Positions 24,608 through 40,184 of a stretch of 64,000 bases of DNA are shown here, piece after piece; positions within the stretch are counted from its first letter, which is position 1, and every line of letters starts with the position of its first letter. Location of the stretch: assembly GCA_017557435.1 (NCBI GenBank), contig JAFYYR010000001.1:62001-126000 (forward strand), read 5' to 3'. Source of the stretch: Pseudobutyrivibrio sp. GTDB taxonomy: Bacteria > Bacillota > Clostridia > Lachnospirales > Lachnospiraceae. Both the position numbers and the translations under genes were made by a program. The notes below the pieces were generated by a model that worked only from the letters and a program-made list of their open reading frames with translations, had not been told where the DNA came from and did no database searches.

Positions 24608-24640
24608 AACATATAACTCCTTTCTTTAAAAACTTGTAAC

Positions 24641-25935: not shown

Positions 25936-25943
25936 GGAGAATG

Positions 25944-26345
25944 ATGAAGACAGTTAGGGTAGTTGCAGCAGTTATAAAAGCAGAAAATGACAAGGGTCAG
26001 CCTATGATATTTGCCACCCAGCGCGGCTACGGTGATTACAAGGATGGCTGGGAATTTCCTGGTGGAAAAATAGAGGATGGTGAGACTCCAAGAGAAGCTC
26101 TTATTCGAGAGATAAAAGAGGAGCTTGATACAGTTATTAAAGTGGGGGATTTGATAGATACAATCGAGTATGATTACCCCACATTTCACCTTTCAATGGA
26201 TTGTTTTTGGAGCGAGATTATAGAGGGGGATCTGGTATTAAAGGAGCATGAAGCAGCTAGGTGGCTTACAAAAGAGACCATAGATGATGTAGATTGGCTA
26301 CCGGCAGACATAACCCTTATAGACCAGCTTAAAAAGCAGATATAA
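25944..26345 (+). CDS. Nudix (MutT-type) hydrolase
   Basis: A 133-residue Nudix protein. The complete Nudix box spans GGKIEDGETPREALIREI to KEEL (about 39-61), and the family tail KEHEAARWLT fits 8-oxo-dGTP diphosphatase/CTP pyrophosphohydrolase relatives. It probably cleans oxidised or non-canonical nucleotides. I prefer ATG 25944 over 25941 because AAGGAGA ends at 25940. It sits 8 bp after the CapA-like gene, probably co-transcribed. Confidence 0.88.
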   Translation: MKTVRVVAAVIKAENDKGQPMIFATQRGYGDYKDGWEFPGGKIEDGETPREALIREIKEELDTVIKVGDLIDTIEYDYPTFHLSMDCFWSEIIEGDLVLKEHEAARWLTKETIDDVDWLPADITLIDQLKKQI

Positions 26346-26386
26346 CATAAAATTACAACGCTAAAATCAAATAAGAGGAGAATATT

Positions 26387-26935
26387 ATGACTGAATTAAT
26401 GACTGGAAGACCTGAAAATACAGAGGGTAGATTGGATAGGGAGATACGAGTTTATGACTTTTTAGATAAGCTTGAAATTGAATATGAAAGAGTGGACCAT
26501 GAGCCAGCCACAACAATGGAGGCCTGTGAAGAGGTAGACAAAAAGCTTGGCACATTAATGTGTAAGAACTTATTCTTGTGCAACAGACAAAAGACCAACT
26601 TTTACCTACTTTTAATGCCAGGAGATAAGAAATTCAAAACAAAAGAGTTGTCTCAGCAGATAAACTCAGCAAGATTATCATTCGCAGATGCGGAAGATAT
26701 GTTAAAATACCTAGATATAGAGCCTGGTGCAGTAAGCGTCATGGGATTGATGAATGATAAGGAAGGAGCGGTAAAGCTCTTAATCGACGAAGAAGTAATA
26801 AAAGGCCAGTATATTGGTTGCCATCCATGCGTGTGCACTAGCAGTCTAAAAATAAAGACAAATTTCATATTGGATAAGTTTTTACCAGCAGTATCCCATA
26901 ATTATGAGGTAGTTAAGCTAGTAGGCGAAGATTAA
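26387..26935 (+). CDS. YbaK/ProX-type aminoacyl-tRNA deacylase
   Basis: A 182-residue member of the YbaK/INS editing superfamily, of the ProX group by length and N-terminus (VYDFLDKLEIEYERVDHEP). The invariant lysine sits in LMCKNLFLCN, and GAVSVMGLMND matches the conserved GxxS block. These enzymes hydrolyse mischarged tRNAs such as Ala-tRNAPro. GAGGAGA lies before the ATG. Its operon relation to the Nudix gene is uncertain (41 bp gap). A terminator follows. Confidence 0.85.
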   Translation: MTELMTGRPENTEGRLDREIRVYDFLDKLEIEYERVDHEPATTMEACEEVDKKLGTLMCKNLFLCNRQKTNFYLLLMPGDKKFKTKELSQQINSARLSFADAEDMLKYLDIEPGAVSVMGLMNDKEGAVKLLIDEEVIKGQYIGCHPCVCTSSLKIKTNFILDKFLPAVSHNYEVVKLVGED

Positions 26936-26994
26936 ACAGCTTGAAATTAGCCTTGCATAATAATTATAAAAGTTGTAAAGTATTCAAAAGACAA

Positions 26995-27025
26995 GGGCGT
27001 CTGCATAATAAGCAGGCGCCTTTTT
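26995..27025 (+). terminator. terminator after the YbaK-like gene
   Basis: A nine- to ten-bp stem GGCGTCTGC/GCAGGCGCC (26996-27004, 27012-27020), loop ATAATAA, then TTTTT. Confidence 0.88.
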
Positions 27026-27072
27026 GCTTTATAGAAAGCAAACAATATCTAATAGTTTAGTTGGAGGCTGAA

Positions 27073-27774
27073 TTGAGACCAGTAATTGGATTAATACCAT
27101 TATTTGATGATGAAAAAGAAAGCTATTGGATGTTGCCAGGATATATGAAGGCAATTGAAAAGGCTGGTGGTCTTCCAATAATGCTGCCCCTTACAGAGGA
27201 GAAAGAAGAACTGGAAGAAGCCTATAGCTTATGTCAGGGGATTTTATTTACAGGGGGCCATGATGTATCCCCGGAAGTATATGGGCAAGAGATTAAGTCC
27301 ACCTGCGGAAAACCTTGTAAATCAAGGGATGTAATGGAAGCTTATTTACTAGACAAATGCATAGAGGAAGATAAACCATTCCTTGGAATTTGCAGAGGTC
27401 TTCAATTTATAAATGCTCATCTTGGAGGTAGCCTTTACCAGGATTTACCTACAGAATATAATTGTACTGTTGAGCATCACATGGCGCCTCCATATAATAG
27501 GCCAGCCCATAGGGTTCAGGTGTTAGAGGACACAAGCCTTTCAGACATAATTGGAAGTGGAGTCCATGAGGTTAACAGTTATCACCATCAAGCAATAAAA
27601 GAGCTGTCGCCAAAGGTTCAAAAAATGGCAGTGTCTGAGGATGGATTAGTTGAGGCAATCGCTGTGAAGAATCACAGATTTGCAATAGGGGTGCAGTGGC
27701 ATCCAGAGTTTTCCTACGAAGATAGTGAGGAAAGCATGAGATTACTAAAGGCATTTATTAAAGAATGTATATAA
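27073..27774 (+). CDS. gamma-glutamyl-gamma-aminobutyrate hydrolase family (class I glutamine amidotransferase-like)
   Basis: A 233-residue PuuD-like peptidase C26. The nucleophile is in FLGICRGLQFINA, and the His-Glu pair is in GVQWHPEFSYED. The N-terminal PVIGLIPLFDDE and LFTGGHDVSPEVYG are family blocks. It would hydrolyse gamma-glutamyl amides. The start is TTG 27073, 5 nt after GGAGG (27063-27067); TTG 27061 overlaps that site. It lies 16 bp before an amino-acid ABC transporter, so the substrate may be an imported glutamyl compound (inference). Confidence 0.88.
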   Translation: MRPVIGLIPLFDDEKESYWMLPGYMKAIEKAGGLPIMLPLTEEKEELEEAYSLCQGILFTGGHDVSPEVYGQEIKSTCGKPCKSRDVMEAYLLDKCIEEDKPFLGICRGLQFINAHLGGSLYQDLPTEYNCTVEHHMAPPYNRPAHRVQVLEDTSLSDIIGSGVHEVNSYHHQAIKELSPKVQKMAVSEDGLVEAIAVKNHRFAIGVQWHPEFSYEDSEESMRLLKAFIKECI

Positions 27775-27790
27775 AGGAAGGAGATTAATT

Positions 27791-28591
27791 ATGAAGAAAA
27801 GAGTTCTAGCAGTTTTAATGGCTGTTGCTACTATGGCAGCAATGGTAGGATGTGGTGACTCAGCTACTCCTGAGAAAGCAGAGAGCACAGAAGGCACAGA
27901 GAGTTCAGGCGGAAAGGTATGGGTTATCGCAACTGATACAGCTTTTAAGCCATTTGAGTACACAGATGACAATGGTGATTTTGTTGGTATTGATATGGAA
28001 ATCTTAGATGCAGTAGCTAAGGACCAGGGCTTTGAATACAAGGTAGATGTACTTGGCTGGGATGCAGCAATTGCAGCTTGTCAGGCTGGACAGGCAGATG
28101 GAATGATTGCAGGCGCATCTATCACAGATGAGCGTAAGGAATCAGGATGGATTTTCTCAGACGGATATTATGACGCTAACCAGAGCATGGCTGTAGAGGC
28201 TTCTTCAGATATCGATGGTTTTGATGATTTATCAGGAAAGTCTGTTGCAGTTAAGACAGGTACAATGAGTGCAACATACGCAGAGGAATTAGCATCAGAG
28301 TATGGATTTACAGTTACATACTTTGAGGATTCTCCAACAATGTATCAGGCAGTAGTTGGCGGACAGGTTGCAGCAGTATTTGACGATACTCCAATCATGG
28401 CTTCTAACATCAAGGAGACAGGAATCGCTATGAAGATTGTAGATGGAACAGGAAATGATCCAGCTCAGTACGGATTCGCAATTTTCAATGCTGATAATCA
28501 GGAGCTTGTAGATATGTTCAATGCAGGCCTTAAGAACATCAAGGAAAACGGAACATACGATGAGATTATTAGTAAGTACCTTGGAGAATAA
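27791..28591 (+). CDS. amino-acid ABC transporter substrate-binding lipoprotein
   Basis: A 266-residue family 3 (polar amino acid) binding protein. The lipobox AMVGC gives Cys21 and a short Ser/Glu-rich linker follows. The bilobal SBP_bac_3 domain starts at WVIATDTAFKPFEYTDDNG, with FVGIDMEILDAVA, GMIAGASITDERKE and AVKTGTMSATYAEEL as ligand-contact blocks. It probably binds glutamine or another polar amino acid. GGAAGGAG precedes the ATG. A stable hairpin separates it from the permease gene. Confidence 0.92.
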   Translation: MKKRVLAVLMAVATMAAMVGCGDSATPEKAESTEGTESSGGKVWVIATDTAFKPFEYTDDNGDFVGIDMEILDAVAKDQGFEYKVDVLGWDAAIAACQAGQADGMIAGASITDERKESGWIFSDGYYDANQSMAVEASSDIDGFDDLSGKSVAVKTGTMSATYAEELASEYGFTVTYFEDSPTMYQAVVGGQVAAVFDDTPIMASNIKETGIAMKIVDGTGNDPAQYGFAIFNADNQELVDMFNAGLKNIKENGTYDEIISKYLGE

Positions 28592-28600
28592 GAAACTAAT

Positions 28601-28622
28601 GTGGGCAGCTAAGTCTGCCCAC
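28601..28622 (+). promoter_or_regulatory. intra-operon hairpin after the binding-protein gene
   Basis: An eight-bp GC-rich stem GTGGGCAG/CTGCCCAC with loop CTAAGT and no T tract. It would protect the upstream mRNA from 3' decay, raising the level of binding protein over permease, rather than terminate. Confidence 0.6.
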
Positions 28623-28641
28623 TGATTATTGAGGATTATAT

Positions 28642-29313
28642 ATGATTAGAATTATAACAGTATATGGACCAATGCTATGTGGGGCTCTAGGAAGAACCCT
28701 TCTTTTAGCGTTATTGGGATTATTTTTCGCCTGTATTATAGGCTTGTTTTTCGGTATCTTAGGCGTGCTTAAGAATAGAGCATGCAATGTTATCTCGCAG
28801 ATATTTGTTGATGTGATTCGTGGCGTGCCAATGATTGTATTGGCATTTTTTGTCTATTTTGGAATCCCTTATTTATTTAACACTATGATAGGTGGATTCA
28901 ATATCAGCTTATCAGCACTTCAGGCTGGTACTATCTGTTTGGCCCTCAACTGTGGTGCATACATGGCAGAAATTGTAAGAGCTGGTATTCAGTCTGTTGA
29001 CCCAGGTCAGATGGAGGCTGCTCGTTCACTTGGTCTTACTTACGGTATGGCCATGAGAAAGGTAGTGCTTCCTCAGGCTATCCGCACTATGATTCCTACA
29101 TTTATCAATCAGTTCATCATTACCTTGAAGGATACATCTATCCTTTCAGTAATTGGTTTCCCAGAACTTGTAAATACAGCAAAAAATGTTCAGGCCAACA
29201 CATTTATGTCATTCCAGACATGGGCCATTGTAGGAATTATGTATTTGATTGTTATCACTATCCTTTCACGTAGTGCAAAGATGGTTGAGAGGAGGTTAAG
29301 CATTGGCAGATAA
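28642..29313 (+). CDS. amino-acid ABC transporter permease (HisM/GlnP type)
   Basis: A 223-residue permease with five predicted membrane helices. The EAA loop that docks the ATPase reads [20 protein letters not shown] (about 132-151). [17 protein letters not shown] is typical of the polar amino acid family. GAGGA lies before the ATG. The gene overlaps the ATPase gene by 11 bases. A single permease implies a homodimeric channel. Confidence 0.94.
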
Positions 29314-30046
29314 GAGTACAGTTAAAATCAAAGTAGAACACTTAAATAAAAAATTTGGAAGCCTTGAAGTATTAAAAGATATTTCAACAGAGGTGTACGC
29401 AGGCGAGGTAGTCTGTGTAATCGGACCTTCAGGCTCAGGAAAGTCAACATTCTTAAGATGTCTAAACAGACTTGAGAAGGCTAGTGCAGGATTAATAGTA
29501 GTAGACGGCGAAGAGATTTTAAGCAAGCAGGTAAACATTAATCATGTGAGAGAAAAGATTGGAATGGTTTTCCAGCATTTTAATCTTTTTAACAACCTTA
29601 ACATCATCGATAATCTTACATTGGCTCCTGTAGAATTAGGAAAATGCTCAAAAGAAGAGGCTACAGAGCGAGCAAAAAAGATGCTTGAGAGGGTAGGGCT
29701 TGAGGACAAGGCAAATAGCTTTCCAAGCCAGCTTTCAGGTGGACAGAAGCAGCGTGTAGCATTTGCAAGAGCTCTTTGCATGGAGCCAGACATCATGCTT
29801 TTTGATGAGCCAACAAGTGCTCTTGATCCAGAAATGGTAGGGGAGGTTCTTCAGGTAATGAAGTCCCTTGCAGCAGATGGTATGACAATGGTGATTGTTA
29901 CACACGAAATGGGATTTGCAAGAGAAGTAGCAGATAGGGTTATTTTCATGGATGGTGGATACATTGTGGAGGAGGGAACTCCACAGGAAGTACTACTTAA
30001 TCCTAAGGAAGAAAGAACAATCGATTTCTTAAATAAAGTATTATAG
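29303..30046 (+). CDS. amino-acid ABC transporter ATP-binding protein (GlnQ type)
   Basis: A 247-residue ATPase. Walker A is GPSGSGKST (about 38-46), the Q loop is VFQHFNLF, the signature is [10 protein letters not shown], Walker B is [14 protein letters not shown], and the H loop is VTHEM. The start is TTG 29303, 7 nt after GGAGG (29291-29295), inside the permease gene. It completes the binding protein-permease-ATPase set. Confidence 0.96.
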
Positions 30047-30056
30047 TGGGGGCTAT

Positions 30057-30644
30057 ATGAAAAATATTATTACAATTAGTAGACAATTTGGCGCAGGCGG
30101 TAGCACAATAGGCCAGGCAGTGGCAGAGAGGCTGGGATACTATTATTGCGACAAAGATATGATTGTAAGGACTGCCATAGAAAGTGGTAATCTTTCACCA
30201 GAAGAGATTCGTTACTATGATGAAAAGGTTCCAAAGGAATTTGGATTTGGACAAAGCCTATTTGATTTTTACAACAAGCCTTTAGATGAGCGTCTTTTTA
30301 ATGCCCAAAGAGAAGCTATTAGAAAGGTTGCTGAAAAGGGTAATTGTGTAATCGTAGGACGAAACGCAAACATTATTCTTAAGGAATATGATAAGAGTCT
30401 TCATGTTTTCATTTCTGCAAGCGAGCGCTTCAGATTAAAGAGAATGATGGGTAAAATGCCAGATGTGCCGGAAGCTAAGGTCCTTGAGAGATTACATTCT
30501 GTTGATAAGGCTCGTAAGAAATATTGTAAATATTATACACACACAGAATTTGGTAATGCAGAATTCTATGATTTATCAGTAAAGAGTTCAACACTTGGAA
30601 TAGATAATTGTGTAGATATCATTTGTAATGCGGCAAAGTTTTAG
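30057..30644 (+). CDS. cytidylate kinase-like family protein
   Basis: A 195-residue P-loop protein of the cytidylate kinase 2 family common in Clostridia. The P-loop is SRQFGAGGSTIGQAVA (8-23), and YYYCDKDMI follows. RNANIILK and HVFISASERFRLKRMM correspond to core strands with arginines of the lid. It may phosphorylate CMP or another small substrate; family function is poorly defined. GGGGG precedes the ATG. It is 10 bp after the ABC ATPase gene, so probably in that transcript. Confidence 0.8.
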   Translation: MKNIITISRQFGAGGSTIGQAVAERLGYYYCDKDMIVRTAIESGNLSPEEIRYYDEKVPKEFGFGQSLFDFYNKPLDERLFNAQREAIRKVAEKGNCVIVGRNANIILKEYDKSLHVFISASERFRLKRMMGKMPDVPEAKVLERLHSVDKARKKYCKYYTHTEFGNAEFYDLSVKSSTLGIDNCVDIICNAAKF

Positions 30645-30662
30645 TGGATAGACTGTTGCGTA

Positions 30663-30692
30663 TTGACATGGGAAAAGATAACTAATTATAAT
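30663..30692 (+). promoter_or_regulatory. near-consensus promoter ahead of a short terminated leader
   Basis: TTGACA (30663-30668), an 18-bp spacer and TATAAT (30687-30692), both boxes perfect. Transcription should start near 30699. An intrinsic terminator lies only about 20 nt further on. Confidence 0.75.
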
Positions 30693-30716
30693 TAAAAAAA
30701 ATATTTTGTTTTCGAC

Positions 30717-30750
30717 AAAGGCGTCGCATTAATTTGCGTCGCCTTTTTTT
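30717..30750 (+). terminator. terminator/attenuator before the alarmone synthetase gene
   Basis: The stem GGCG-T-CGCA/TGCG-T-CGCC (30720-30728, 30735-30743; one T-T mismatch) with loop TTAATT is followed by seven Ts. It can end the upstream operon, and it would also stop most transcripts from the 30663-30692 promoter after about 50 nt. Confidence 0.85.
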
Positions 30751-30841
30751 ATGCTAAAAAAGCAAAACGGAGATGGTAAATCAAGAACAATTCTTGGAAC
30801 TACGGTGGAATAGTGAATTAAAAAAGGGGAAGGAAGGTAAT

Positions 30842-31831
30842 ATGATAAAACTTAACGATTATTTGTATGATGGTGAGACGATTTTTAGAATACTGCAAAA
30901 GTATATGGATGATTTAGAGGCAAGCGCGATGGATTCCCATAATCAAATAGATATAGTTCATTGTTCATTTATTGAAACAATATACGAGTTATTGGAGCAT
31001 AATGAGTTCTTGACGTCTCAGTCCCAGCGAATAAGAGAGTTTTATAAATACATGGTGGAGAAGTATTATTATCTTGCATTTACTTTTAAAGGGAGAATTA
31101 AATCCATTATCAGATCAGAGGAAAAATTTAATAGATATATAGTGGATTTTATATATGAGTATTATCAGCAGTATCATCATTTTCCTGCTATACAGGAAGT
31201 AAAAGAAAAGTTAAGCTGCTTCAGGGATTTGATTGCTTATAGGATAGTAATATCCTTGCCTAAGTGTCACCTTAAAGAGGGCCAGGACAGAGAGGAAGAA
31301 GAGATAAAGCTATTATACGAAATAGCAAATGCACTTCCCTCTTTTTTATCAGAACAGGGATTTGCTGTTGTGAAATCAAATCTTGAGGGTAGGGAATGCT
31401 CTGACTTGTTGGATGAGAACTTGAGAGATATTTATAGAGATTATGTTCATGAGCCAACCAGTGCTGGTTATAGATCTTTGCATCTAACACTGTTTGATGA
31501 GATGGCAAGATGTTATGTAGAAGTTCAGCTTAGAACAAAGGATATGGATGACAGCGCAGAAATAGGAAATTCAAACCATTTAAGATATGTGAAGGCTCAA
31601 GAACAGCAGCATAGTAGAAGAAATGAAATACCAGTAGGAGAATGTTTATACTTCGATGAGGCGTATGAGCGAGTGGTAGCTCTTGAAAATATAGATTTAT
31701 CAAAGATAGATGTAAATATGTTTACAGCGGAAAATAACAGCCTGATTAATGATGGATGTGGACTATTTAGGGGTAGACAGATTTTGCCGTTTGAACATTT
31801 ATCAAGATTTCAAAATGGATTGGTGGATTAA
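30842..31831 (+). CDS. RelA/SpoT-type (p)ppGpp synthetase domain protein
   Basis: A 329-residue protein with a RelA synthetase domain (about 75-250) and no HD hydrolase, TGS or ACT domain. Catalytic-type residues are in place: R85, K87 and S88 in KGRIKSI; K95; D129 and R134 in RDLIAYRIV; Y210 in GYRSLH; E227 in VEVQLRT; and H246. It should transfer pyrophosphate from ATP to GDP/GTP. The N-terminal helical region (1-75) and the C-terminus (250-329) match no domain I know. ATG 30842 follows AAGGAAGG; the open frame back to 30773 lacks a site. It precedes the ATP-grasp fusion gene by 32 bp. Confidence 0.8.
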   Translation: MIKLNDYLYDGETIFRILQKYMDDLEASAMDSHNQIDIVHCSFIETIYELLEHNEFLTSQSQRIREFYKYMVEKYYYLAFTFKGRIKSIIRSEEKFNRYIVDFIYEYYQQYHHFPAIQEVKEKLSCFRDLIAYRIVISLPKCHLKEGQDREEEEIKLLYEIANALPSFLSEQGFAVVKSNLEGRECSDLLDENLRDIYRDYVHEPTSAGYRSLHLTLFDEMARCYVEVQLRTKDMDDSAEIGNSNHLRYVKAQEQQHSRRNEIPVGECLYFDEAYERVVALENIDLSKIDVNMFTAENNSLINDGCGLFRGRQILPFEHLSRFQNGLVD

Positions 31832-31863
31832 AAAAGTAGATTAATAACTTGGGGGAATTTACA

Positions 31864-34440
31864 ATGGCAGCATTTGATAGAGTATGTTCTGGTATTCCGC
31901 AAATGGATGAGCAGTTTGACAACATTAGATTTGGGGATAATGTTGTCTGGAGGGTGGATAAGCTAGAGGATTTTATGCTTTTTGCAGGTCCATACGTGAA
32001 GCAGGCAATAGAGGATGGGAGAAATCTAATTTATGTTAGATTTGCATCTCACGAGCCACTCTTTGAACCACAGGAAGGTTTGAAGATTGTTAATGTGGAA
32101 CTGTCCCACAGATTTGAGACTTTTACAGTTGCTATTCATGAAATAATTGAAAGGGAAGGTGTTGATGCCTTCTTTGTATTTGATTGTCTGTCAGAACTTC
32201 AGACTGCTTGGGCTACAGACCTTATGATGGGTAATTTTTTTCAAGTAACCTGCCCATATCTTTTTTCACTTGATACTGTGGCCTTCTTCCCATTGATTAG
32301 AGGTAAGCATTCATTTAAAGCAATAGCTAAAATTCGTGATACAACACAGCTATTTCTAGATGTTTATTCAGATTCAAAGCATGTATATGTAAGGCCAGAT
32401 AAGGTTTGGAATAGGTATTCTGAGACAATGTTTTTGCCTCATATTTATGAGCCTGAAAATGGTACATTTAAGCCGATGCTTGATGGTGTAATGGCTAGCC
32501 ATTTTTATCAGTTACTTGAAACTGAAACATCAAATGCAGACCGTGGAAACAAGGATAGCTGGGATAGATTTTTTGATATGACAAAGACCATGCACGAAAA
32601 TGGCATTGACGTCACTGAGCAGTGTAATAGGATGTGCAATATCATGATGAGCAGAGATGAAAGGATGCGCATCATGATAAAAGAAAACTTTAGGGTCGAG
32701 GATTATCTTAATGTGAAAAATAGGATGATTGGAACGGGCATGATAGGTGGAAAAGCCTGCGGAATGCTCCTTGCCAGAAAGATTATTGAGAACAGTAGGC
32801 CTGATATATTTGATAAGTTTGAGCCCCATGATTCCTTTTATGTGGGCTCTGATGTATTTTATACATTTATTGTGGAGAACCACTTTTGGGATATTAGGGT
32901 AAGACAGCGAAAGCCAGAAGAATATTTTAGTTTGGCGGAGGAGTTTGCAAATCGTCTAAAAACTGGAAAGTTTTCGCGAGATATGGAAGAAGATTTGGTT
33001 AAGCTTCTTGAGTATTACGGTCAAGATCCAATTATTGTAAGGTCAAGCTCTATTTTAGAAGACGGATTTGGCAATGCGTTTGCAGGAAAGTATGAATCAG
33101 TATTTTGCCCGAATGCAGGGGATATGGAACAAAGACTTTTGGAACTTGAGGATGCGATTCGTACAGTTTATGCTAGCACGATGAGTAAGTCAGCCTTAGA
33201 TTATAGAAATCGTCGTGGACTGCAGGCAAGAGATGAGCAGATGGCTCTTTTGATTCAGAGAGTTTCGGGTTCATATTATGGGGATTATTATATGCCTTGT
33301 GCAGCAGGCGTTGGTTATTCATACAGCCCATATCGATTTATGGAAAGTCTGCAGCCAACAGCAGGAATGCTTCGTCTTGTAATGGGACTTGGAACGTCAG
33401 CAGTGGATAGAACGGAGGGCTCATATCCAAGACTTGTAAGCCTTGATAAGCCAAAGGCCTCAACAGCGAAAAATAGCATCGAAAAACATAGATATTCGCA
33501 GAAGAAATTGGAACTTATTAATCGAGCTGAAGGGAAGTTGCAGCAGGTAGAGCTGGATACAATAAAACCATTTATGCCATTTTATTTGCAGGGCTTGCTT
33601 TTAGAACATGATTATGAGGCAGAAAGCATCTATCGTGAACAGGGACATCCTAGAGATATACAGTTTATTTCTTGCAATGGAATAGTTGCAAAGGATGAAT
33701 TAATGGCTCAGATGAAAGACATTTTGAGAACTATTCAAGAAACATATGAATATCCTGTGGACACAGAGTTTACTATCAATTTTGCTGAGAATGGAGATTA
33801 TGTAATTAACATTCTGCAGTGTCGACCTCTTCAGATTTTTGAGGATTCAATGGATTTTGAAATGCCGGAAAATATTGATGAAAATAAGATTTTATTTGAA
33901 TGCGAAAAGTCTTCAATGGGATTATCCAGAGTGGAAAAGATGGATTTAATAGTCTACGTTGATGCTGTTAAATATTACAACATGGACTACAAGGATAAGT
34001 ACATTATTGCTAATGCCATCGGAAAGATAAATTGGAAGATGCGTAATCAGGGAAAAAAGATGCTTCTCATGGTACCAGGGCGCATTGGAACAACATCTCC
34101 TGAGCTTGGAGTACCTACAGCATTTGCGGATATAAGTGAGTTTGAAGCAATTTGCGAGATTGCAAATTCTGAGGCGGGATACAATCCAGAGCTTTCTTAT
34201 GGAAGCCATTTCTTCCAGGACCTAGTGGAATCAGGAATACTATATAATGCCATTTTTGAAAATGAAAAGACGAAGGTCTTTAATATGGGATTGTTGAAGG
34301 GATATAAGAATATTTTGGTAGAGATGGATAGCAAATATAGGGAGATAGAAGAAATAGTAAAAGTGTATGATGTTTCCGAAAAGGATATTTACTTATGCAA
34401 TGACATGAAAAATGAAAGAATAATATGTTATGAGAGATAG
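31864..34440 (+). CDS. degenerate KaiC-like domain fused to PPDK-type ATP-grasp domain
   Basis: An 858-residue soluble protein. Residues 1-175 resemble RAD55/KaiC: SGIPQMDEQFDNIRFGDNVVW corresponds to the KaiC entry segment. Where the Walker A should be, it reads RVDKLEDF, so ATP binding there is probably lost; VDAFFVFDCLSEL resembles Walker B. From about 290 a PEP synthase/PPDK N-terminal ATP-binding domain follows: GGKACG (295-300), IVRSSSILED (391-400), FAGKYESVF (406-414) and LQCRPLQ (near 650). The phosphohistidine and PEP-binding domains are absent. A further domain (about 660-858) is unrecognised. Reaction unknown. ATG 31864 has GGGGGAA 6 nt upstream. It is adjacent to the alarmone synthetase gene. 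Confidence 0.65.
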   Translation: MAAFDRVCSGIPQMDEQFDNIRFGDNVVWRVDKLEDFMLFAGPYVKQAIEDGRNLIYVRFASHEPLFEPQEGLKIVNVELSHRFETFTVAIHEIIEREGVDAFFVFDCLSELQTAWATDLMMGNFFQVTCPYLFSLDTVAFFPLIRGKHSFKAIAKIRDTTQLFLDVYSDSKHVYVRPDKVWNRYSETMFLPHIYEPENGTFKPMLDGVMASHFYQLLETETSNADRGNKDSWDRFFDMTKTMHENGIDVTEQCNRMCNIMMSRDERMRIMIKENFRVEDYLNVKNRMIGTGMIGGKACGMLLARKIIENSRPDIFDKFEPHDSFYVGSDVFYTFIVENHFWDIRVRQRKPEEYFSLAEEFANRLKTGKFSRDMEEDLVKLLEYYGQDPIIVRSSSILEDGFGNAFAGKYESVFCPNAGDMEQRLLELEDAIRTVYASTMSKSALDYRNRRGLQARDEQMALLIQRVSGSYYGDYYMPCAAGVGYSYSPYRFMESLQPTAGMLRLVMGLGTSAVDRTEGSYPRLVSLDKPKASTAKNSIEKHRYSQKKLELINRAEGKLQQVELDTIKPFMPFYLQGLLLEHDYEAESIYREQGHPRDIQFISCNGIVAKDELMAQMKDILRTIQETYEYPVDTEFTINFAENGDYVINILQCRPLQIFEDSMDFEMPENIDENKILFECEKSSMGLSRVEKMDLIVYVDAVKYYNMDYKDKYIIANAIGKINWKMRNQGKKMLLMVPGRIGTTSPELGVPTAFADISEFEAICEIANSEAGYNPELSYGSHFFQDLVESGILYNAIFENEKTKVFNMGLLKGYKNILVEMDSKYREIEEIVKVYDVSEKDIYLCNDMKNERIICYER

Positions 34441-34445
34441 AATTA

Positions 34446-34454
34446 TGCTATTAT
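34446..34454 (+). promoter_or_regulatory. extended -10 promoter, possibly giving leaderless sfsA mRNA
   Basis: TGCTATTAT forms an extended -10 (TG at 34446-34447, TATTAT at 34449-34454). Only six bases separate it from the sfsA ATG (34461), so the predicted transcription start falls on or next to the start codon. No ribosome binding site is visible. Confidence 0.5.
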
Positions 34455-34460
34455 CTTTCC

Positions 34461-35123
34461 ATGAAATATGAATGCATCGTAGAAGCAAAATTTATATCTA
34501 GACCAAATAGATTTATAGCCCATGTAGATATTGATGGTACAGAAGTAGTTGTCCACGTGAAAAATACAGGGCGATGCAAGGAACTTTTAATACCAGGATG
34601 CCGGGTTTATCTTGAAAAAGCTACTAATCCAGAGAGGAAAACGCCCTATGACTTAGTAGCTGTAGATACACCTACTGGCATAGTAAATATAGATTCTCAA
34701 GCACCAAATGCCGTAGTAAAAGAGTGGCTTTTAAAGCAGGACTATGACCTGGTTGTGCCTGAGTACAAATACGGGAATTCTAGAATCGATTTTTACATGG
34801 AAAAAGGAGAGGATAAATATCTTCTTGAGGTAAAGGGCTGCACCCTGATAAAAGATGGGATAGGCTACTTCCCTGATGCGCCTACAGAGCGAGGAGTAAA
34901 GCACCTTAGAGAACTTACCGCAGCCATAGACAAAGGATACAAAGCCATGGCAGCCTTTGTAATTCAAGTGGAGGGCGTCAGTGAGGTAAGACCAAACATA
35001 GAGACCCATCCAGAGTTTGGGGTAGCTCTAAAAGAGGCAGAAGAAGCAGGGGTAGAAGTGCTATTTTTAGAATGCAATGTGAAAAAAGATGAGCTTACAG
35101 TAAAAGCTTCTAAATCATTATGA
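34461..35123 (+). CDS. sfsA: SfsA family DNA/RNA nuclease-like protein
   Basis: A 220-residue SfsA protein. The N-terminal OB-like part has FISRPNRFIAHVDIDG and VKNTGRCKELLIPG. The C-terminal PD-(D/E)xK-like domain has SRIDFYMEK, YLLEVKGCTLIKDG and FPDAPTERGVKHLREL. SfsA was first described for maltose-gene expression in E. coli; its biochemical role is still unclear. No Shine-Dalgarno precedes the ATG, and a promoter -10 lies 6 nt upstream. Its last codons lie in the terminator stem. Confidence 0.94.
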   Translation: MKYECIVEAKFISRPNRFIAHVDIDGTEVVVHVKNTGRCKELLIPGCRVYLEKATNPERKTPYDLVAVDTPTGIVNIDSQAPNAVVKEWLLKQDYDLVVPEYKYGNSRIDFYMEKGEDKYLLEVKGCTLIKDGIGYFPDAPTERGVKHLRELTAAIDKGYKAMAAFVIQVEGVSEVRPNIETHPEFGVALKEAEEAGVEVLFLECNVKKDELTVKASKSL

Positions 35124-35137
35124 TTTAGAAGCTTTTT
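35102..35137. terminator. bidirectional terminator shared by sfsA and the DUF1294 gene
   Basis: A perfect sixteen-bp stem (35102-35117 with 35121-35136), loop TTA, AAAA on the left and TTTTT on the right. The sfsA stop (35121-35123) and the opposing stop (35125-35127) both lie in the hairpin. Confidence 0.92.
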
Positions 35138-35397
35138 GTATATATTAGCCACCCTACAACCAGATGAATTGCAAGAATTAAAGGCATTCCAATGACGAAA
35201 TACCAGTGTTTTGTTTTGTGGCGGAAGAGATACATGCCTAAAAGAGTGCCGATGCTTCCACCGATGGCGCTGACTAAAAATAGAGTCTTCTCAGGGATGC
35301 GCCATTGATTGGAAATAGCTCTTTTTTTATCGATTCCCATCACAGCAAGACCAAGTGCATTCATCATAACCAAATAAGAAATAATAAGATCTTTCAT
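35125..35397 (-). CDS. DUF1294 family membrane protein
   Basis: A 90-residue membrane protein of the DUF1294 family with three predicted helices. The family core GIDKKRAISNQWRIPE (about 21-36) and LFLVSAIGGSIGTLLGMYLFRHKTKH are clear. Function unknown. The ATG at 35397 has a weak site (GGGAGAT, 35404-35410). It converges on sfsA, with the stop codons one base apart. Confidence 0.88.
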   Translation of the reverse strand: MKDLIISYLVMMNALGLAVMGIDKKRAISNQWRIPEKTLFLVSAIGGSIGTLLGMYLFRHKTKHWYFVIGMPLILAIHLVVGWLIYTKSF

Positions 35398-35521
35398 AAA
35401 ATATCTCCCTAGAAATGTTATGAATCTATTATAAAAAAATTAAAATAAAATATGCAAACTATTTGTCTAAAAGGAAAAAAGATTTATCATATAAGCAGGG
35501 ATTAGGAAATGGGAGAATGAT

Positions 35522-36142
35522 ATGCTTAGTAAGACACATTTAGCAATAGGAGTGGCCAGCTCTCTTACTATTCTTGCACCTGATACATTGCAGGAGCTAT
35601 GCCCAATAGTTATAGGAGCATCGGTTGGAAGTATTCTTTGTGATATAGATTGTAAAATTGGTGTATCAAAGGATGCAGTTTTAGGAAGAGCTATAGCAAC
35701 TATACTATCGGTGGCGGCATTGTATATAGATATATATGCTCATGGAAGCATGTTTGAATATTTCATGCAGACACATATTATTTCTTTGCTTCTGGGGCTT
35801 TTAATAATATTGATTACGGGGTATTTTGCTAGAGAATCAGTGCATAGGGGATTTTCACATTCGCTGATGGCATTTGGACTATATGGCATAGGAATATTTT
35901 TGTTTTCAAAGCCAGTGCTTTTAGGATTTATTATAGGATTTGCTTCCCATCTATTATTGGACATTTTAAACTATCGTCCAGTCCAGCTATTTTACCCTAG
36001 AGAAAAGGGAGTAAGCCTTAAAATATGCAAAGCCAAATCAAAGCTTAATATTGTAATTATGATCGTAGGATATATATGGCTTATTGCTGTGTGCGCTTTA
36101 AACTATCAGCATTTCCTGGTTTTAATGCCCCAAAGGGGGTAA
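35522..36142 (+). CDS. YdjM/DUF457-type membrane-bound metal-dependent hydrolase
   Basis: A 206-residue membrane protein. It begins with the KTHLAIGVA histidine motif and contains GSILCDIDCKIG and HRGFSHSLMAF. FASHLLLDILN is the metal-site set of the YdjM (LexA-regulated, inner-membrane) family. Four to five membrane helices are predicted. The reaction is not established. GGGAGA precedes the ATG. A possible promoter TTGTCT-16 bp-TATCAT lies at 35463-35490. Confidence 0.85.
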   Translation: MLSKTHLAIGVASSLTILAPDTLQELCPIVIGASVGSILCDIDCKIGVSKDAVLGRAIATILSVAALYIDIYAHGSMFEYFMQTHIISLLLGLLIILITGYFARESVHRGFSHSLMAFGLYGIGIFLFSKPVLLGFIIGFASHLLLDILNYRPVQLFYPREKGVSLKICKAKSKLNIVIMIVGYIWLIAVCALNYQHFLVLMPQRG

Positions 36143-36231
36143 AGGCATAACTCTTTATGCATAGTGCACAGTTTTAGATATTGCAATTTGTTTAATTTGT
36201 ATATTTACCCAATGGAACTTTCTAAAAAAGG

Positions 36232-36240
36232 TGGTATTCT
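36232..36240 (+). promoter_or_regulatory. extended -10 promoter of the 28-codon gene
   Basis: TGGTATTCT forms a TG-n-TATTCT extended -10. The region at -35 (about 36212-36217) is only weakly similar to consensus. The start would be about 36247, leaving a 34-nt leader with AGGAGG. Confidence 0.5.
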
Positions 36241-36280
36241 AATGGTGTAATTAGGAATCAGCTTGATAGGAGGTTAGAAG

Positions 36281-36367
36281 ATGGGCTTATTTAGAGAGTT
36301 ATTTGACAGCGAAAACGGCACATTAATGACATTCGTTGAGTTTTTAAAGAGCGGATATGTCGACTAA
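36281..36367 (+). CDS. 28-residue small protein, unknown
   Basis: A 28-codon frame beginning MGLFRELFDSENG and ending KSGYVD, with AGGAGG at 36269-36274 six bases before the ATG. It has its own extended -10 promoter, and a strong terminator begins 24 bases after the stop. It is amphipathic (F, L and M against D, E and K) with no membrane helix. I do not recognise it. The complete set of signals around so short a frame makes chance unlikely. A regulatory RNA that happens to contain a frame is the alternative. Confidence 0.6.
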   Translation: MGLFRELFDSENGTLMTFVEFLKSGYVD

Positions 36368-36390
36368 ATAAATTTGAAAAAGCATTTCGG

Positions 36391-36422
36391 AGTGTCCTTA
36401 TAAAGGGGCACTTCTTTTTTTT
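36391..36422 (+). terminator. terminator after the 28-codon gene
   Basis: The stem AGTGTCCTT/AGGGGCACT (36391-36399, 36404-36412; two G-T pairs), loop ATAA, then TCTTTTTTTT. Confidence 0.88.
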
Positions 36423-36489
36423 ATAATTATATCAACGAAAACCTGTAGGAGAATTACTTGTATTTTGTACGGAATCAGGAGGTGTTGAT

Positions 36490-37014
36490 ATGGAGAAAAA
36501 TATTAAAATATATATAGACATGGATGGGTGCATAGCCAAGTGGAATATGAATGCATCCATAGAAGATACATTTGAGCCGGGTTATTTTGCAGGATTGGAG
36601 CCGGACGAGAGATTAATAGATACAGTTAAGATGCTATCGAAAGAATACGATGTCAGCATTTTATCAGCGGTTTATCAGGACAATCACTCGGTGGATGATA
36701 AAATAAAGTGGCTTAATAATAATGGGTTAGGCTACCTGCAGCGGATATTTGTACCTTATGGCGAGTCCAAGCAAAATTATATTGATCAGAGTTTTACATC
36801 CATTTTAATTGACGATTATTCGAAAAATTTAGAGGAGTGGATTTTAGGTAAAAATTGTTTCGGAATCAAGTATCTCAACGGAATTAATGCTACAAAGGGC
36901 TTGTGGAATGGGTTTATGATTTCCAGCCGAATGAATCCTAGCGCCATGTACACAACCATCAAAGGAATTGTGTCGCAATTAATTGTGCAAAACGCACTTG
37001 CAAAAACAGCATAG
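36490..37014 (+). CDS. 5'(3')-deoxyribonucleotidase-like HAD protein
   Basis: A 174-residue HAD-fold protein. Motif I is YIDMDGCIAKW (residues 8-18) with the nucleophile and acid Asp, motif II is near SILSAVY, and motif IV ILIDDYSKNL supplies the metal aspartates. Length and the start resemble the NT5C/YorS group that dephosphorylates (deoxy)nucleotides; such proteins are often phage-derived. AGGAGG precedes the ATG. The rubrerythrin promoter overlaps its 3' end. Confidence 0.72.
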   Translation: MEKNIKIYIDMDGCIAKWNMNASIEDTFEPGYFAGLEPDERLIDTVKMLSKEYDVSILSAVYQDNHSVDDKIKWLNNNGLGYLQRIFVPYGESKQNYIDQSFTSILIDDYSKNLEEWILGKNCFGIKYLNGINATKGLWNGFMISSRMNPSAMYTTIKGIVSQLIVQNALAKTA

Positions 37015-37026
37015 ATTAGCGATAAT
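36998..37026 (+). promoter_or_regulatory. promoter of rubrerythrin
   Basis: TTGCAA (36998-37003), 17 bp, GATAAT (37021-37026). The -35 lies in the last codons of the upstream nucleotidase gene. The leader is about 40 nt and contains two purine-rich ribosome-binding-like stretches. Confidence 0.65.
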
Positions 37027-37073
37027 CAAAACAAAGGGGAGGAGAGTTTATTGGTGTAAAAGGAGGATACGAA

Positions 37074-37616
37074 ATGGCAGAAAACAAATACGCAGGTACT
37101 AAGACCGAGAAGAACTTATGGGAGGCATTTGCTGGCGAGTCTATGGCTCGCAACAAATATACATATTTTGCTTCAGTTGCTAAGAAGGCTGGTTATGAGC
37201 AGATTGCAGCATTATTCTTAAAGACAGCTGACAATGAGAAGGAGCATGCTAAGCTTTGGTTCAAGGCTTTAGGCGGTGTTGGTACTACTCCTGAAAATCT
37301 TCTTCACGCAGCAGAGGGTGAGAATGCTGAGTGGACAGATATGTATGATCGTATGGCTAAGGAAGCTGACGAGGAAGGATTCCCAGAGCTTGCAGCACAG
37401 TTTAGAGGTGTAGCAGCTATTGAGAAGGCTCACGAGGAGCGCTATCGCAAGCTTCTTAACAACGTAGAGGCAATGGAAGTATTCAAGAAGAGTGGCGTAA
37501 CTATGTGGGAATGCCGCAACTGTGGTCACATTGTAGTTGGTACAGAGGCTCCAGAGGTTTGCCCAGTTTGCAAGCATCCAAAGGCATACTTCGAGGTTAG
37601 AGAAGAGAATTATTAA
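37074..37616 (+). CDS. rbr: rubrerythrin
   Basis: A 180-residue rubrerythrin. The N-terminal di-iron four-helix bundle has the Glu/His ligands in [21 protein letters not shown] and [11 protein letters not shown]. The C-terminal rubredoxin domain has CRNCG (about 143-147) and CPVCKHP (about 158-164). It reduces hydrogen peroxide in anaerobes. AAAGGAGGA lies before the ATG. It is monocistronic, with promoter and terminator. Confidence 0.97.
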
Positions 37617-37642
37617 TTCCTAATCTAAGGATTTGTTTTTTC

Positions 37643-37682
37643 CAGGGTCAATGTTGATTAGTTCAGCATGGCCCTGATTTTA
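37643..37682 (+). terminator. terminator after rubrerythrin
   Basis: A long imperfect stem (37643-37657 with 37663-37676; one bulge and wobble pairs) closed by CAGGG/CCCTG, then ATTTTAT. Confidence 0.75.
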
Positions 37683-37704
37683 TAAGACTATTAAGGAGGA
37701 TGAC

Positions 37705-38007
37705 ATGGTAAAGCACGTTATTTTATGGACTTTAAAAGAAGAGTATTCTAATGAGGAAAAGGCTAAAATCAAGGCTGGTATCAAAGAGGGCCTTGAGGCA
37801 CTTCAGGGTAAGATTCCAGGATTAATTGATATCAAAGTATACACAGAAGGATTACCTAGCTCTAACGCAGACTTGATGCTTGATTCATCATTCGAGGATG
37901 AGGCTTCCCTTAAGGGTTATGCAGTACATCCAGAGCATGTTGCTGTAGCAGATGGCAAGGTACGTCCATACACAGCATCAAGAGTATGCCTTGATTACGA
38001 GGTATAG
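37705..38007 (+). CDS. Dabb (stress-responsive alpha/beta-barrel) domain protein
   Basis: A 100-residue dimeric ferredoxin-like Dabb domain protein. It has VKHVILWTLKEE at the start, an IKAGIKEGLEALQGKIPGL helix, and the conserved YAVHPEHVAVADGKVRP block. Members are small oligomeric proteins of varied or unknown function. AAGGAGG precedes the ATG. The gap to the dehydrogenase gene is 30 bp, so they may be co-transcribed. Confidence 0.88.
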   Translation: MVKHVILWTLKEEYSNEEKAKIKAGIKEGLEALQGKIPGLIDIKVYTEGLPSSNADLMLDSSFEDEASLKGYAVHPEHVAVADGKVRPYTASRVCLDYEV

Positions 38008-38037
38008 AATCCTAATAACATAGAAAAGAGACGTAAA

Positions 38038-38976
38038 ATGAAGATAGTATTCCTAGACAGAAAAACAATAGGAGAAGATATTGATCTTTCAGGTTTTGAG
38101 AGATTTGGAGAGGTTGTAATTTACGATTATTCCACACCTGACCAGGTGTTAGAGAGAGTTGAGGATGCAGATATTATCGTCCTTAACAAGGTGCCAGTTA
38201 ATGAGTCCACTATTTCATCAGCTAAGAATCTTAAGCTTGTATGTGTGACAGCTACTGGAACTAACAATCTAGACAAGGATTATCTTGCAAGCAGAGGCAT
38301 AGAGTGGAGAAATGTTGCTGGATACTCTACAGAGGCAGTTGCCCAGCATACACTTGCTTTAGTGTTACATTTATATGAGCACCTAAGCTACTATGATGAT
38401 TATGTAAAAAGTGAGCGCTATGTAGATGATAAGATGTTCACTCATTTTGAAAAGCATTTTAACGAAATCAGCGGCAAGACATGGGGTATAATCGGACTTG
38501 GCGCAATAGGAAGCAGAGTGGCAGAGATTGCCACATGCCTTGGAGCTCAGGTTGTTTACTATTCTACAACTGGACGTAATCACTCAGATATCTACAAGGA
38601 AGTGGATTTTGATACACTTTTATCCACATCAGATATCATTACTATCCACGCACCACTTGATGAAAATACACTACATTTAATTGATAAGTCTGCTCTGGAG
38701 AAGATGAAAAACACAGCAGTCCTGGTAAATGTGGGAAGAGGTCCTATCATTGTGGAAAAAGACTTAGCTGAGGCTCTAGAATGTGGACAAATTGCGGCAG
38801 CAGGCCTTGATGTACTTGATGTAGAGCCAATGTCTAGTGACAATCCACTTGTTAGAATCAAGGACAGCACTAAGCTTCTTATCACTCCTCATATTGCATG
38901 GGCTGCTGTAGAGGCGAGACAGCGACTTATGAAAATTATCGAGGGACAGATAGAGGACATCATTTCTTCAAAATAA
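38038..38976 (+). CDS. D-2-hydroxyacid dehydrogenase
   Basis: A 312-residue NAD-dependent D-isomer dehydrogenase. The cofactor loop is GLGAIGSRVAEIATCLG (about 154-170). The catalytic Arg is in NVGRGPIIVE (about 230-239), the Glu lies in the DVLDVEPM segment, and the His is in TPHIAWA. The N-terminus is a 2-HacidDH catalytic half. Relatives act as hydroxypyruvate, glycerate or 2-hydroxyisocaproate dehydrogenases; substrate unknown. Only a weak ribosome binding site (AGAGACG) is seen. Confidence 0.9.
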   Translation: MKIVFLDRKTIGEDIDLSGFERFGEVVIYDYSTPDQVLERVEDADIIVLNKVPVNESTISSAKNLKLVCVTATGTNNLDKDYLASRGIEWRNVAGYSTEAVAQHTLALVLHLYEHLSYYDDYVKSERYVDDKMFTHFEKHFNEISGKTWGIIGLGAIGSRVAEIATCLGAQVVYYSTTGRNHSDIYKEVDFDTLLSTSDIITIHAPLDENTLHLIDKSALEKMKNTAVLVNVGRGPIIVEKDLAEALECGQIAAAGLDVLDVEPMSSDNPLVRIKDSTKLLITPHIAWAAVEARQRLMKIIEGQIEDIISSK

Positions 38977-39023
38977 TCTGATAAACTGAAGTTCCTAAGT
39001 AATTGAAAATGGGGACTTGGCTT

Positions 39024-39200
39024 ATGGATTTTAACTACGAAGATGAAAACAAGCCATACTCATCAGATGATGCGTATGAAGACTTAGAGAAGATTCGCGA
39101 TATACTACACGATGCTCAGATGCGGATTAATAAGGACAAAATAAATAAGGCAGATATCGATGTTAGTATAAACATAGATTTACCGAACTCAAATAAATAG
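39024..39200 (+). CDS. small acidic protein of unknown function
   Basis: A 58-residue protein I do not recognise. It starts MDFNYEDENKPYSSDDAY, then has a helix (EDLEKIRDILHDAQMRINKD) and a C-terminal beta-like tail (DIDVSINIDLP). ATG 39024 follows GGGGAC (39010-39015 region); TTG 39003 and ATG 39009 in frame lack a site. A terminator follows at once, so it is probably the last gene of the Dabb-dehydrogenase transcript. Confidence 0.6.
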   Translation: MDFNYEDENKPYSSDDAYEDLEKIRDILHDAQMRINKDKINKADIDVSINIDLPNSNK

Positions 39201-39232
39201 AAAAGGCTGTAATAACAGTCTTTTCTTTATGT
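39201..39232 (+). terminator. terminator after the small acidic protein gene
   Basis: The stem AAAAGGCTGT/ACAGTCTTTT (39201-39210, 39215-39224; one G-T pair), loop AATA, then CTTTAT. Confidence 0.75.
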
Positions 39233-39272
39233 TTTTATAGAGAGTAATTGAAAATAGAAAGAGAGAATTATT

Positions 39273-40184
39273 ATGTGGTTATTTTTCGCGCTTGCGACAA
39301 CATTAATTTGGGGTCTAGCGGAGCTATTTTATAAGAAGGGTGCAAGGCCAGATGAGAAATACGCTCACCTTAAAATATGCGTCTGCGTTGGTTTCATAAT
39401 GGGTATTCATGCCACATTTACACTTATAACAGGAGGTATTGGATATAATCCAGCCAACTTGATTAATTATCTTCCAGTGTCACTTTGCTATATCATTTCA
39501 ATGGCATTCTCATTTTTTGGAATGAGATTTATAGAAGAGTCAATTTCAGATCCTATTGAGAATACATCAGGTGCTATATGTTCACTATTAGCAGTAATTA
39601 TTTTAGGTGAGACAATTGCATTTGGCTCAGCAGTAGCTATTGTAATTATAGTAATCGGTATCTTAGGTATAGGATTTTTGGATAACACAGGGGATACTGA
39701 CAGAAAGAAAAAACTTGGAAAGAAGATGGCTGTTATTGCATTTGCAATGCCATTTTGCTACGCAATTATCGATGCGATAGGAAGCCTTCTTGATATATAT
39801 TTCTTAGATATTGAGACTAGTCCTCTTACAAATGTAACTGAAAAGACAATTGAGGATGTGGCCAATACATCATACGAGATTACATTTTTTATCTGCGCAG
39901 TAATTATTCTTATTTTCCTGAAAATAAAGGGAGTGAAGTTTGAGCTGCCAACTCAAAGAGATAAGATTTTAGCTGGTGTTTGCGAGACAGCAGGCCAGTT
40001 CACATACGTATATGCCATGAGTGGTGATGGAGCAATTGCTGCACCTATCATTTCATCAGTGTGTGTAGTATCACTTATATTATCTAGATTAGTTTTGAAA
40101 GAGAAGCTTACCAAGCTTCAATATTTCTTCCTGTTTTTAGTAATTGCAGGTATTCTTACCCTTGCAGTGATTGAGGGTGACTAG
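39273..40184 (+). CDS. EamA/DMT-superfamily transporter
   Basis: A 303-residue protein with about ten membrane helices in two EamA halves. The first starts LFFALATTLIWGLAELFYKKGA; the second ends with APIISSVCVVSLILSRLVLKEKL, the family-typical tail. An unusual hydrophilic loop of about 25 residues (SPLTNVTEKTIEDVANTSYE, about 188-212) interrupts the second half. The substrate of this metabolite exporter/importer family cannot be told. GAGAGA precedes the ATG. Confidence 0.88.
   Translation: MWLFFALATTLIWGLAELFYKKGARPDEKYAHLKICVCVGFIMGIHATFTLITGGIGYNPANLINYLPVSLCYIISMAFSFFGMRFIEESISDPIENTSGAICSLLAVIILGETIAFGSAVAIVIIVIGILGIGFLDNTGDTDRKKKLGKKMAVIAFAMPFCYAIIDAIGSLLDIYFLDIETSPLTNVTEKTIEDVANTSYEITFFICAVIILIFLKIKGVKFELPTQRDKILAGVCETAGQFTYVYAMSGDGAIAAPIISSVCVVSLILSRLVLKEKLTKLQYFFLFLVIAGILTLAVIEGD

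What the first reader, a model, noticed from the sequence alone, without database searches (positions are those of the whole stretch)
30842..34440. Alarmone synthetase next to a KaiC-like/PPDK ATP-grasp fusion: possible undescribed two-gene signalling system
A RelA-type synthetase with apparently intact catalytic residues, but without HD, TGS or ACT domains, is followed at 32 bp by an 858-residue protein. That protein joins a RAD55/KaiC-like domain whose Walker A has become RVDKLEDF to a PEP synthase/PPDK ATP-binding domain that lacks the phosphohistidine and PEP-binding domains. PPDK-type domains transfer phosphate or pyrophosphate via a histidine partner, which is missing here. I infer that the fusion senses or uses a nucleotide, possibly (p)ppGpp, or acts on an unknown acceptor. 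I know of no named system of this make-up.
Basis: partly seen in the sequence, partly recalled or inferred. Interest (0 to 1): 0.8.

Follow-up and report, generated by a model that had tools for sequence, protein, structure and literature searches.

The report
Nitrogen-linked ATP-grasp protein beside alarmone synthetase
Two neighbouring genes of a rumen bacterium, a probable alarmone maker and an uncharacterised ATP-binding protein, may be parts of an undescribed nitrogen-status control system, because the second gene recurs beside glutamine and glutamate genes in other bacteria.

Summary
The two genes are real and where stated. REL (30842-31831, 329 aa) is an HD-less RelA/SpoT-type synthetase; its recognisable catalytic residues do not vary in 46 distinct homologues. 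The pair recurs in Lachnospiraceae in both gene orders but is no obligate two-gene system: of 299 family genomes 12 have both, 50 full-type FUS only, 23 REL only. In a blind clustering of FUS neighbours the five top-ranked families were REL, glutamine-dependent NAD synthetase, GltB, GltD and glutamate dehydrogenase. FUS occurs across the phylum mostly without REL. A longer relative lies next to glutamate dehydrogenase in 7 of 7 genomes examined; three of three members scanned end in a nucleotidyltransferase domain. Best reading: FUS is an ATP-dependent nitrogen-status regulator to which some Lachnospiraceae couple an alarmone synthetase, in role like PTS-Ntr acting on SpoT. Chemistry and signal are inferred.

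The parts
30842..31831 (+). REL: RelA/SpoT-type synthetase, 329 aa, no HD/TGS/ACT; G-loop-like GRIKSIIRSEEK, DLIAYR, GYRSLH, EVQLRT motifs
31864..34440 (+). FUS: 858 aa, inactivated KaiC-like domain + PPDK_N ATP-grasp + conserved C-terminal domain
31864..32478 (+). FUS residues 1-205: KaiC-like domain (profile match over 1-121), Walker A place taken by RVDKLEDF (residues 30-37), Walker-B-like FDCLSEL
   Evidence: one search gives only weak Pfam matches
32740..33882 (+). FUS residues 293-673: PPDK_N ATP-grasp domain; K297, R393, E399, D400, K409 in 136 of 136 rows, E635 134, Q652 133, R654 133 of 136 (2 rows gapped)
33889..34437 (+). FUS residues 676-858: unnamed conserved C-terminal domain, motifs PGR..T..P.LG and PELS.GSH.FQD, His782
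30663..30692 (+). sigma-70-type promoter-like site, 12 of 12 matches, 18-nt spacer
   Evidence: consensus match only; 28 sites of any strength in the region against 18.6 expected
30717..30746 (+). terminator-like hairpin with T run between that promoter-like site and REL; either the end of the upstream gene or an attenuator
   Evidence: z -3.5; not flagged by the scan
34461..35123 (+). SfsA gene 20 nt behind FUS, probably the last gene of the transcription unit (terminator-like hairpin 35102-35136)
27061..30046 (+). local context: Peptidase_C26/GATase-like gene and ABC transporter (SBP_bac_3, permease, ATPase)

Best explanation
FUS belongs to an uncharacterised family of ATP-grasp proteins devoted to nitrogen (glutamine/glutamate) status. 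An N-terminal sensor-like part (an inactivated KaiC-like domain here, another part or none in relatives) governs an active PPDK-type ATP site, and the conserved C-terminal domain, perhaps through its near-invariant histidine, receives or passes on the phosphoryl group or binds the partner. Targets are probably nitrogen-assimilation enzymes such as glutamate dehydrogenase and glutamate synthase. In some Lachnospiraceae an HD-less RelA-type synthetase is placed under the same control, so that nitrogen limitation raises an alarmone. Shown: domain make-up, residue conservation, recurrent neighbourhoods. Inferred: activity, direction of the signal, the acceptor, and that REL and FUS regulate each other at all.
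For: Blind clustering of 351 genes within two positions of FUS ranks REL (10 loci), NadE (8), GltB (7), GltD (5), GDH (6) first against 1040 far or control genes. Nitrogen families near FUS 32 of 356 genes, far 4 of 559, random stretches 2 of 519 (families picked, nine of the ten seeds confirmed by Pfam). 30 of 104 full-length loci have one within two positions, with 21 changes on the tree, at least 17 forced by starred branches. In 8 of 13 phylum-wide loci FUS is by GDH, GltB-GltD or PII. 7 of 7 long relatives examined are adjacent to GDH, 6 of them directly downstream of it at 15-77 nt. ATP-grasp residues invariant. REL adjacency changes at least 5 times on the REL tree, in both orders. Precedent: glutamine loss acts through PTS-Ntr on SpoT in Caulobacter (PMC4848567, passages).
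Against: 74 of 104 full-length loci have no such gene within two positions. The samples are centred on the window and hold related genomes: the phylum GDH loci L278, L279, L281 share one genus code and the GltB-GltD loci L282-L284 another. Co-occurrence of REL and FUS is barely above chance (p 0.045). Nitrogen genes near REL are only 4 of 109. The short form has GDH nearby in 1 of 29 rows. No structure, activity or ligand. The C-terminal domain has no recognised relative. Neighbourhood can reflect shared regulation rather than mechanism.
Confidence: 0.45

Rival explanations
1. FUS is a metabolic enzyme, an ATP-dependent ligase or kinase acting on a small nitrogen compound, and not a regulator; REL is a frequent but unrelated neighbour.
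For: ATP-grasp domains are commonly ligases (recalled); NCBIfam matches of the PPDK_N part include the ligases PigC and RedH as well as PEP synthases, all far below cut-off.
Against: Variable N-terminal parts, or none, on a constant core; no single pathway among the neighbours.
Confidence: 0.25
2. FUS acts by binding: an ATP-dependent inhibitor or scaffold of GDH or GOGAT without transfer chemistry.
For: Direct GDH adjacency; KaiC-like domain without Walker A.
Against: Five ATP-grasp residues invariant in 136 of 136 rows, as expected for catalysis.
Confidence: 0.15
3. REL-FUS is a toxin-antitoxin or phage-defence pair of the toxSAS kind.
For: REL weakly matches a PADLOC candidate model (PDC-S33, 1.2e-5).
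Against: FUS matches no PADLOC or PHROG family; no small partner recurs widely beside REL (a 168-aa membrane gene in 7 of 45 loci, a 100-aa gene in 2); REL stands without full-type FUS in 23 of 35 genomes.
Confidence: 0.05
4. No functional link between REL and FUS: both are patchy single genes that now and then share a neighbourhood.
For: Weak co-occurrence; both patchy.
Against: 3 of 12 genomes with both have them adjacent, the other 9 on different contigs; random order would predict about 0.01 (my estimate, not computed in a call). Both orders, several lineages.
Confidence: 0.2

Closest known systems
PTS-Ntr (EI-Ntr, HPr, EIIA-Ntr) acting on SpoT in Caulobacter (PMC4848567, passages seen)
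   Same: A nitrogen-status phosphotransferase coupled to alarmone level
   Different: EI-Ntr takes phosphate from PEP and has a glutamine-binding GAF domain; FUS has an ATP-grasp and a KaiC-like domain and no EI or phosphohistidine family match; REL has no hydrolase domain
PEP synthase / pyruvate phosphate dikinase (PPDK_N, PF01326)
   Same: ATP-grasp domain with invariant active-site residues
   Different: No PF00391 phosphohistidine domain, no PEP/pyruvate barrel; different C-terminal domain
Inactivated KaiC-like (iKaiC) and MEDS domains of archaeal signalling proteins (PMC5847659, passages seen)
   Same: KaiC-like domain without an active ATP site in signalling proteins; one weak Pfam MEDS match among 40 members
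   Different: Here fused to a PPDK-type ATP-grasp, in Bacillota
Receiver-domain fusions to pyruvate phosphate dikinase (PMC5847659; aspartate-less receivers in PMC4395418; passages seen)
   Same: A signalling domain, in PMC4395418 a degenerate one, on a PPDK-type domain
   Different: Receiver instead of KaiC-like domain; not compared by sequence here
Small alarmone synthetases (RelQ/RelP type)
   Same: HD-less RelA_SpoT synthetase motifs
   Different: Longer (329 aa), own N- and C-terminal parts, more residues between motifs, Arg at the place of the G-loop serine; distinct from the two other RelA_SpoT proteins of this genome (open frames 775 and 248)

Membership tests
RelA/SpoT-type alarmone synthetases, HD-less | RelA_SpoT domain | tested here: met
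   Pfam 3e-12, over cut-off but only profile positions 57-111 of 113; hhalign to long Rel 96.6 and SAS 97.0 over the C half only
RelA/SpoT-type alarmone synthetases, HD-less | ATP-site R.K.......K, Asp, catalytic Tyr and Glu (equivalence to Rel recalled) | tested here: met
   R85, K87, K95, D129, Y210, E227, Q229, R231 in 47 of 47 rows (46 distinct); the G-loop serine place is Arg91 in all; the automatic alignment did not place the G-loop, it was read by eye
RelA/SpoT-type alarmone synthetases, HD-less | Makes (p)ppGpp or a related alarmone | not testable with these tools
   needs an assay
KaiC/RAD55 ATPases | Sequence profile likeness | tested here: met
   hhalign 94.7, ten controls 0.1-0.7; no direct Pfam PF06745 match
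KaiC/RAD55 ATPases | Walker A motif | tested here: not met
   0 of 104 rows
PEP synthase / PPDK | PPDK_N ATP-grasp | tested here: met
   1.9e-43, residues invariant
PEP synthase / PPDK | Phosphohistidine domain PF00391 | tested here: not met
   no Pfam match; C-domain against a profile of 16 such domains hhalign 0.2
PEP synthase / PPDK | PEP/pyruvate-binding barrel | tested here: not met
   no Pfam match
PTS-Ntr | EI-type PEP-utilising enzyme with GAF domain | tested here: not met
   no such Pfam match in FUS
toxSAS toxin-antitoxin | Conserved adjacent antitoxin gene | tested here: not met
   no small partner recurs over most of the 45 REL loci

The most novel reading that the evidence does not exclude
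The PPDK_N plus C-domain core is a new class of nitrogen-status signal transducer of Bacillota, with interchangeable sensor parts (KaiC-like or other) and outputs (alarmone synthesis via REL, nucleotidyl transfer to glutamate dehydrogenase via a fused nucleotidyltransferase), doing with ATP what PTS-Ntr does with PEP and GlnD/GlnE do in Proteobacteria.
Probability: 0.25. Interest if true: 0.9.

Novelty: new variant of a known kind. Interest (0 to 1): 0.6.

Why it matters
How many Clostridia sense nitrogen status is poorly known (recalled). A protein that recurs beside glutamine and glutamate genes over the phylum, with an intact ATP site and no known function, is a directly testable candidate. 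The REL neighbour would tie it to alarmone signalling.

Tried and rejected
Obligate pair: rejected by counts. Phosphohistidine domain hidden in the FUS C-terminus: my early idea from the PGR..T..P.LGVP motif; profile comparison gave 0.2. Defence or toxin pair: no support. Known RNA families before REL: none in 24000-40000 at gathering score. PDB relatives of the N-domain by sequence: best E 0.46, unrelated; the whole FUS profile found a PEP synthase at E 2.8e-4.

Literature: the searches listed nothing that I recognised as this gene pair or family. Listings were capped: one search showed 15 of 89 papers, 12 of 11,651, 12 of 16, 10 of 14, 8 of 25, 8 of 23; some searches were shown in full. The two papers mention PPDK_N in connection with SelO (passages). 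Only open-licence papers are held.

Limits of the counts. Gene calls in relatives are crude longest-ORF calls made in scripts. L177 was dropped as the same contig as L071; loci with an identical FUS C-terminus were counted once; L185 was lost because an overlapping antisense ORF displaced its FUS, and in L202 only a FUS fragment matches. The 62 full-type FUS genomes are the 79 minus 17 dropped by hand (only weak, fragmentary, short-form or long-form matches). Alignment A1 used 37 of the 42 loci. The 105 loci include short forms. Control stretches come from 40 family genomes only, while add 13 phylum loci. Of the 45 REL rows and 45 loci, 12 were fetched through FUS, so leans towards FUS; among the 35 genomes found by REL itself adjacency is 3. 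Three further open frames of 982-1022 aa at 28-29% identity (G409, G588, G452) were not examined for GDH.
Full report
Observation. The two ORFs lie where stated. REL is best taken from ATG 30842, the start shared by its relatives; a longer ORF of 352 aa starts at 30773. It matches RelA_SpoT only. FUS runs from ATG 31864 to 34440, 32 nt behind the REL stop, and matches PPDK_N only. The genome is close to Pseudobutyrivibrio xylanivorans (FUS 99% identical in strain MZ8, L161). One FUS match is found in it, and two other RelA_SpoT proteins, open frames 775 and 248.

REL. In 47 rows (46 distinct) the residues R85, K87, K95, D129, R134, Y210, E227, Q229 and R231 never vary; Y201 is F once; the place of the G-loop serine is Arg91 in all (equivalence to Rel is recalled and read by eye, because the automatic alignment did not bridge the longer spacing). 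Profile comparison ties only the C half to long Rel and small synthetases (probability 96.6 over 60 columns and 97.0 over 41). REL is found in 35 of 299 family genomes (in two, G052 and G150, only the C-terminal part matches) and 3 of 348 phylum genomes, the window's own included.

FUS. Three parts. The N-domain compares with a KaiC profile built from 43 domains of Bacillota at probability 94.7 (P 6e-8, 120 columns), with ten control families at 0.1 to 0.7. Pfam alone gives only weak matches to 13 families, among them DUF7090 (7 of 40 members, best 6.7e-5), DUF5647 (4, best 0.0066) and MEDS (1, 0.051). No member has a Walker A motif (0 of 104 rows). K297, R393, E399, D400 and K409 are invariant in 136 rows: 105 full, 25 short, 6 long. 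The C-domain carries PGR..T..P.LG and PELS.G[ST]H.F.D; His782 is kept in 132 of 134 rows with a letter there. It resembles neither the phosphohistidine domain nor any other profile tried (0.1 to 1.2).

Other forms of the family. A short form without the KaiC-like part (about 570-640 aa), in some genomes beside a full copy (G104, G148, G214, G136), and a long form of 1031-1068 aa with a different N-part and a C-terminal nucleotidyltransferase domain (NTP_transf_2 7.4e-9, 2.7e-8 and 2.4e-7 in the three members scanned, above cut-off). By eye the N-part of the long form looks GAF-like; Pfam does not report it.

Distribution and pairing. Full-type FUS was counted in 62 of 299 family genomes; 12 have both genes, 50 FUS only, 23 REL only, Fisher p 0.045. 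Of the 12, three have them adjacent (G000, G103, G112); in the other nine they lie on different contigs. Among named genomes they are adjacent or within a few genes in Pseudobutyrivibrio and several other Lachnospiraceae, as REL-FUS or FUS-REL. On a tree of 45 REL rows the adjacency label needs 6 changes, 5 forced by starred branches, and both orders occur. 12 of those 45 rows came in through FUS searches, so frequencies there are biased; the need for repeated change is not. Outside the family, 13 of 348 phylum genomes hold the full architecture at 40-43% identity.

Nitrogen context. Looking at clusters of neighbours I noticed glutamine and glutamate genes. Pfam confirmed nine of the ten representatives used as seeds (CTP synthase was named by eye). 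Near FUS (within two positions) they are 32 of 356 genes, far 4 of 559, in random stretches of 40 family genomes 2 of 519 (Fisher p 9e-15, with families chosen after seeing the data). A blind clustering then ranked all neighbour families present in at least three loci: REL, NadE, GltB, GltD, GDH came first; next came an amidase-like gene confined to four related loci, amino-acid transporter parts and a FUSC-like gene; ammonium transporter, PurF and glutamine synthetase followed among unrelated families. The loci are not independent: three of the seven GltB loci share a genus, three of the six GDH loci another, and the sample is centred on the window, which favours REL. On the FUS tree 30 of 104 loci carry a nitrogen gene within two positions, needing 21 changes, at least 17 forced, so this is not one inherited block. 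In the 13 phylum loci FUS sits directly before GDH in three and convergent to it in one, behind GltB-GltD in three, near two divergent PII genes in one; five show no such gene. The long form is next to GDH in 7 of 7 genomes examined, 6 of them directly downstream of it at 15-77 nt, the seventh (L068) convergent with another GDH; the short form in 1 of 29 rows. In the window itself the upstream genes are a Peptidase_C26/GATase-like gene and an ABC transporter with an SBP_bac_3 binding protein; in close relatives REL directly follows what by eye is the same C26 gene, and FUS is followed by an SBP_bac_3 transporter (L162; similar genes in L163, L165, L189). Evidence that REL by itself is nitrogen-linked is thin: 4 of 109 near genes (p 0.009).

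Transcription. A 12-of-12 promoter-like site at 30663-30692 is followed by a terminator-like hairpin at 30717-30746 and then REL; REL, FUS and SfsA probably form one unit that ends at a hairpin at 35102-35136. The promoter-like site and hairpin are kept in L161 but not before REL in the other six loci looked at.

Mechanism. I propose a nitrogen-status regulator with active ATP chemistry, acting on nitrogen enzymes and, in some Lachnospiraceae, on alarmone synthesis. The nearest working analogue is PTS-Ntr acting on SpoT on glutamine loss (PMC4848567, passages). It is an analogy of role, not of family. Degenerate signalling domains on PPDK-type domains have a parallel: receivers without the aspartate are noted as associated with pyruvate phosphate dikinases (PMC4395418, one passage). 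Which residue accepts the phosphoryl group, what is sensed, and whether REL and FUS interact are open.

Noticed in passing
L291, L292, L297, L298, L299, L068, L069: 1031-1068 aa relatives of FUS, next to glutamate dehydrogenase in all 7 genomes examined; a C-terminal nucleotidyltransferase domain in the three scanned (L291, L297, L069).
   Followed up: partly
L159:8567-9858, L200: FUS followed by a LuxR-type (GerE) regulator and a PII protein in two loci (Pfam on L159 only).
   Followed up: no
30663-30746: Perfect promoter-like site followed within 25 nt by a strong terminator-like hairpin upstream of REL; could be an attenuator.
   Followed up: partly
L165:7471-7974 and six other REL loci: A 168-aa FUSC/aromatic-acid-exporter-like membrane gene recurs beside REL (7 of 45 loci, five of them Pseudobutyrivibrio).
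   Followed up: no
30057-30644; also L033, L190: Cytidylate-kinase-like gene within two positions of FUS in three clustered loci (L161, L033, L190).
   Followed up: no
L287, L288, L289: FUS followed by a class V aminotransferase (Pfam on L287) and, by eye, a DUF1015 gene in three related loci.
   Followed up: no
L202 (Pseudobutyrivibrio sp. ACV-2): REL intact, but only the first 65 residues of FUS match at 93%; FUS may be broken there.
   Followed up: no
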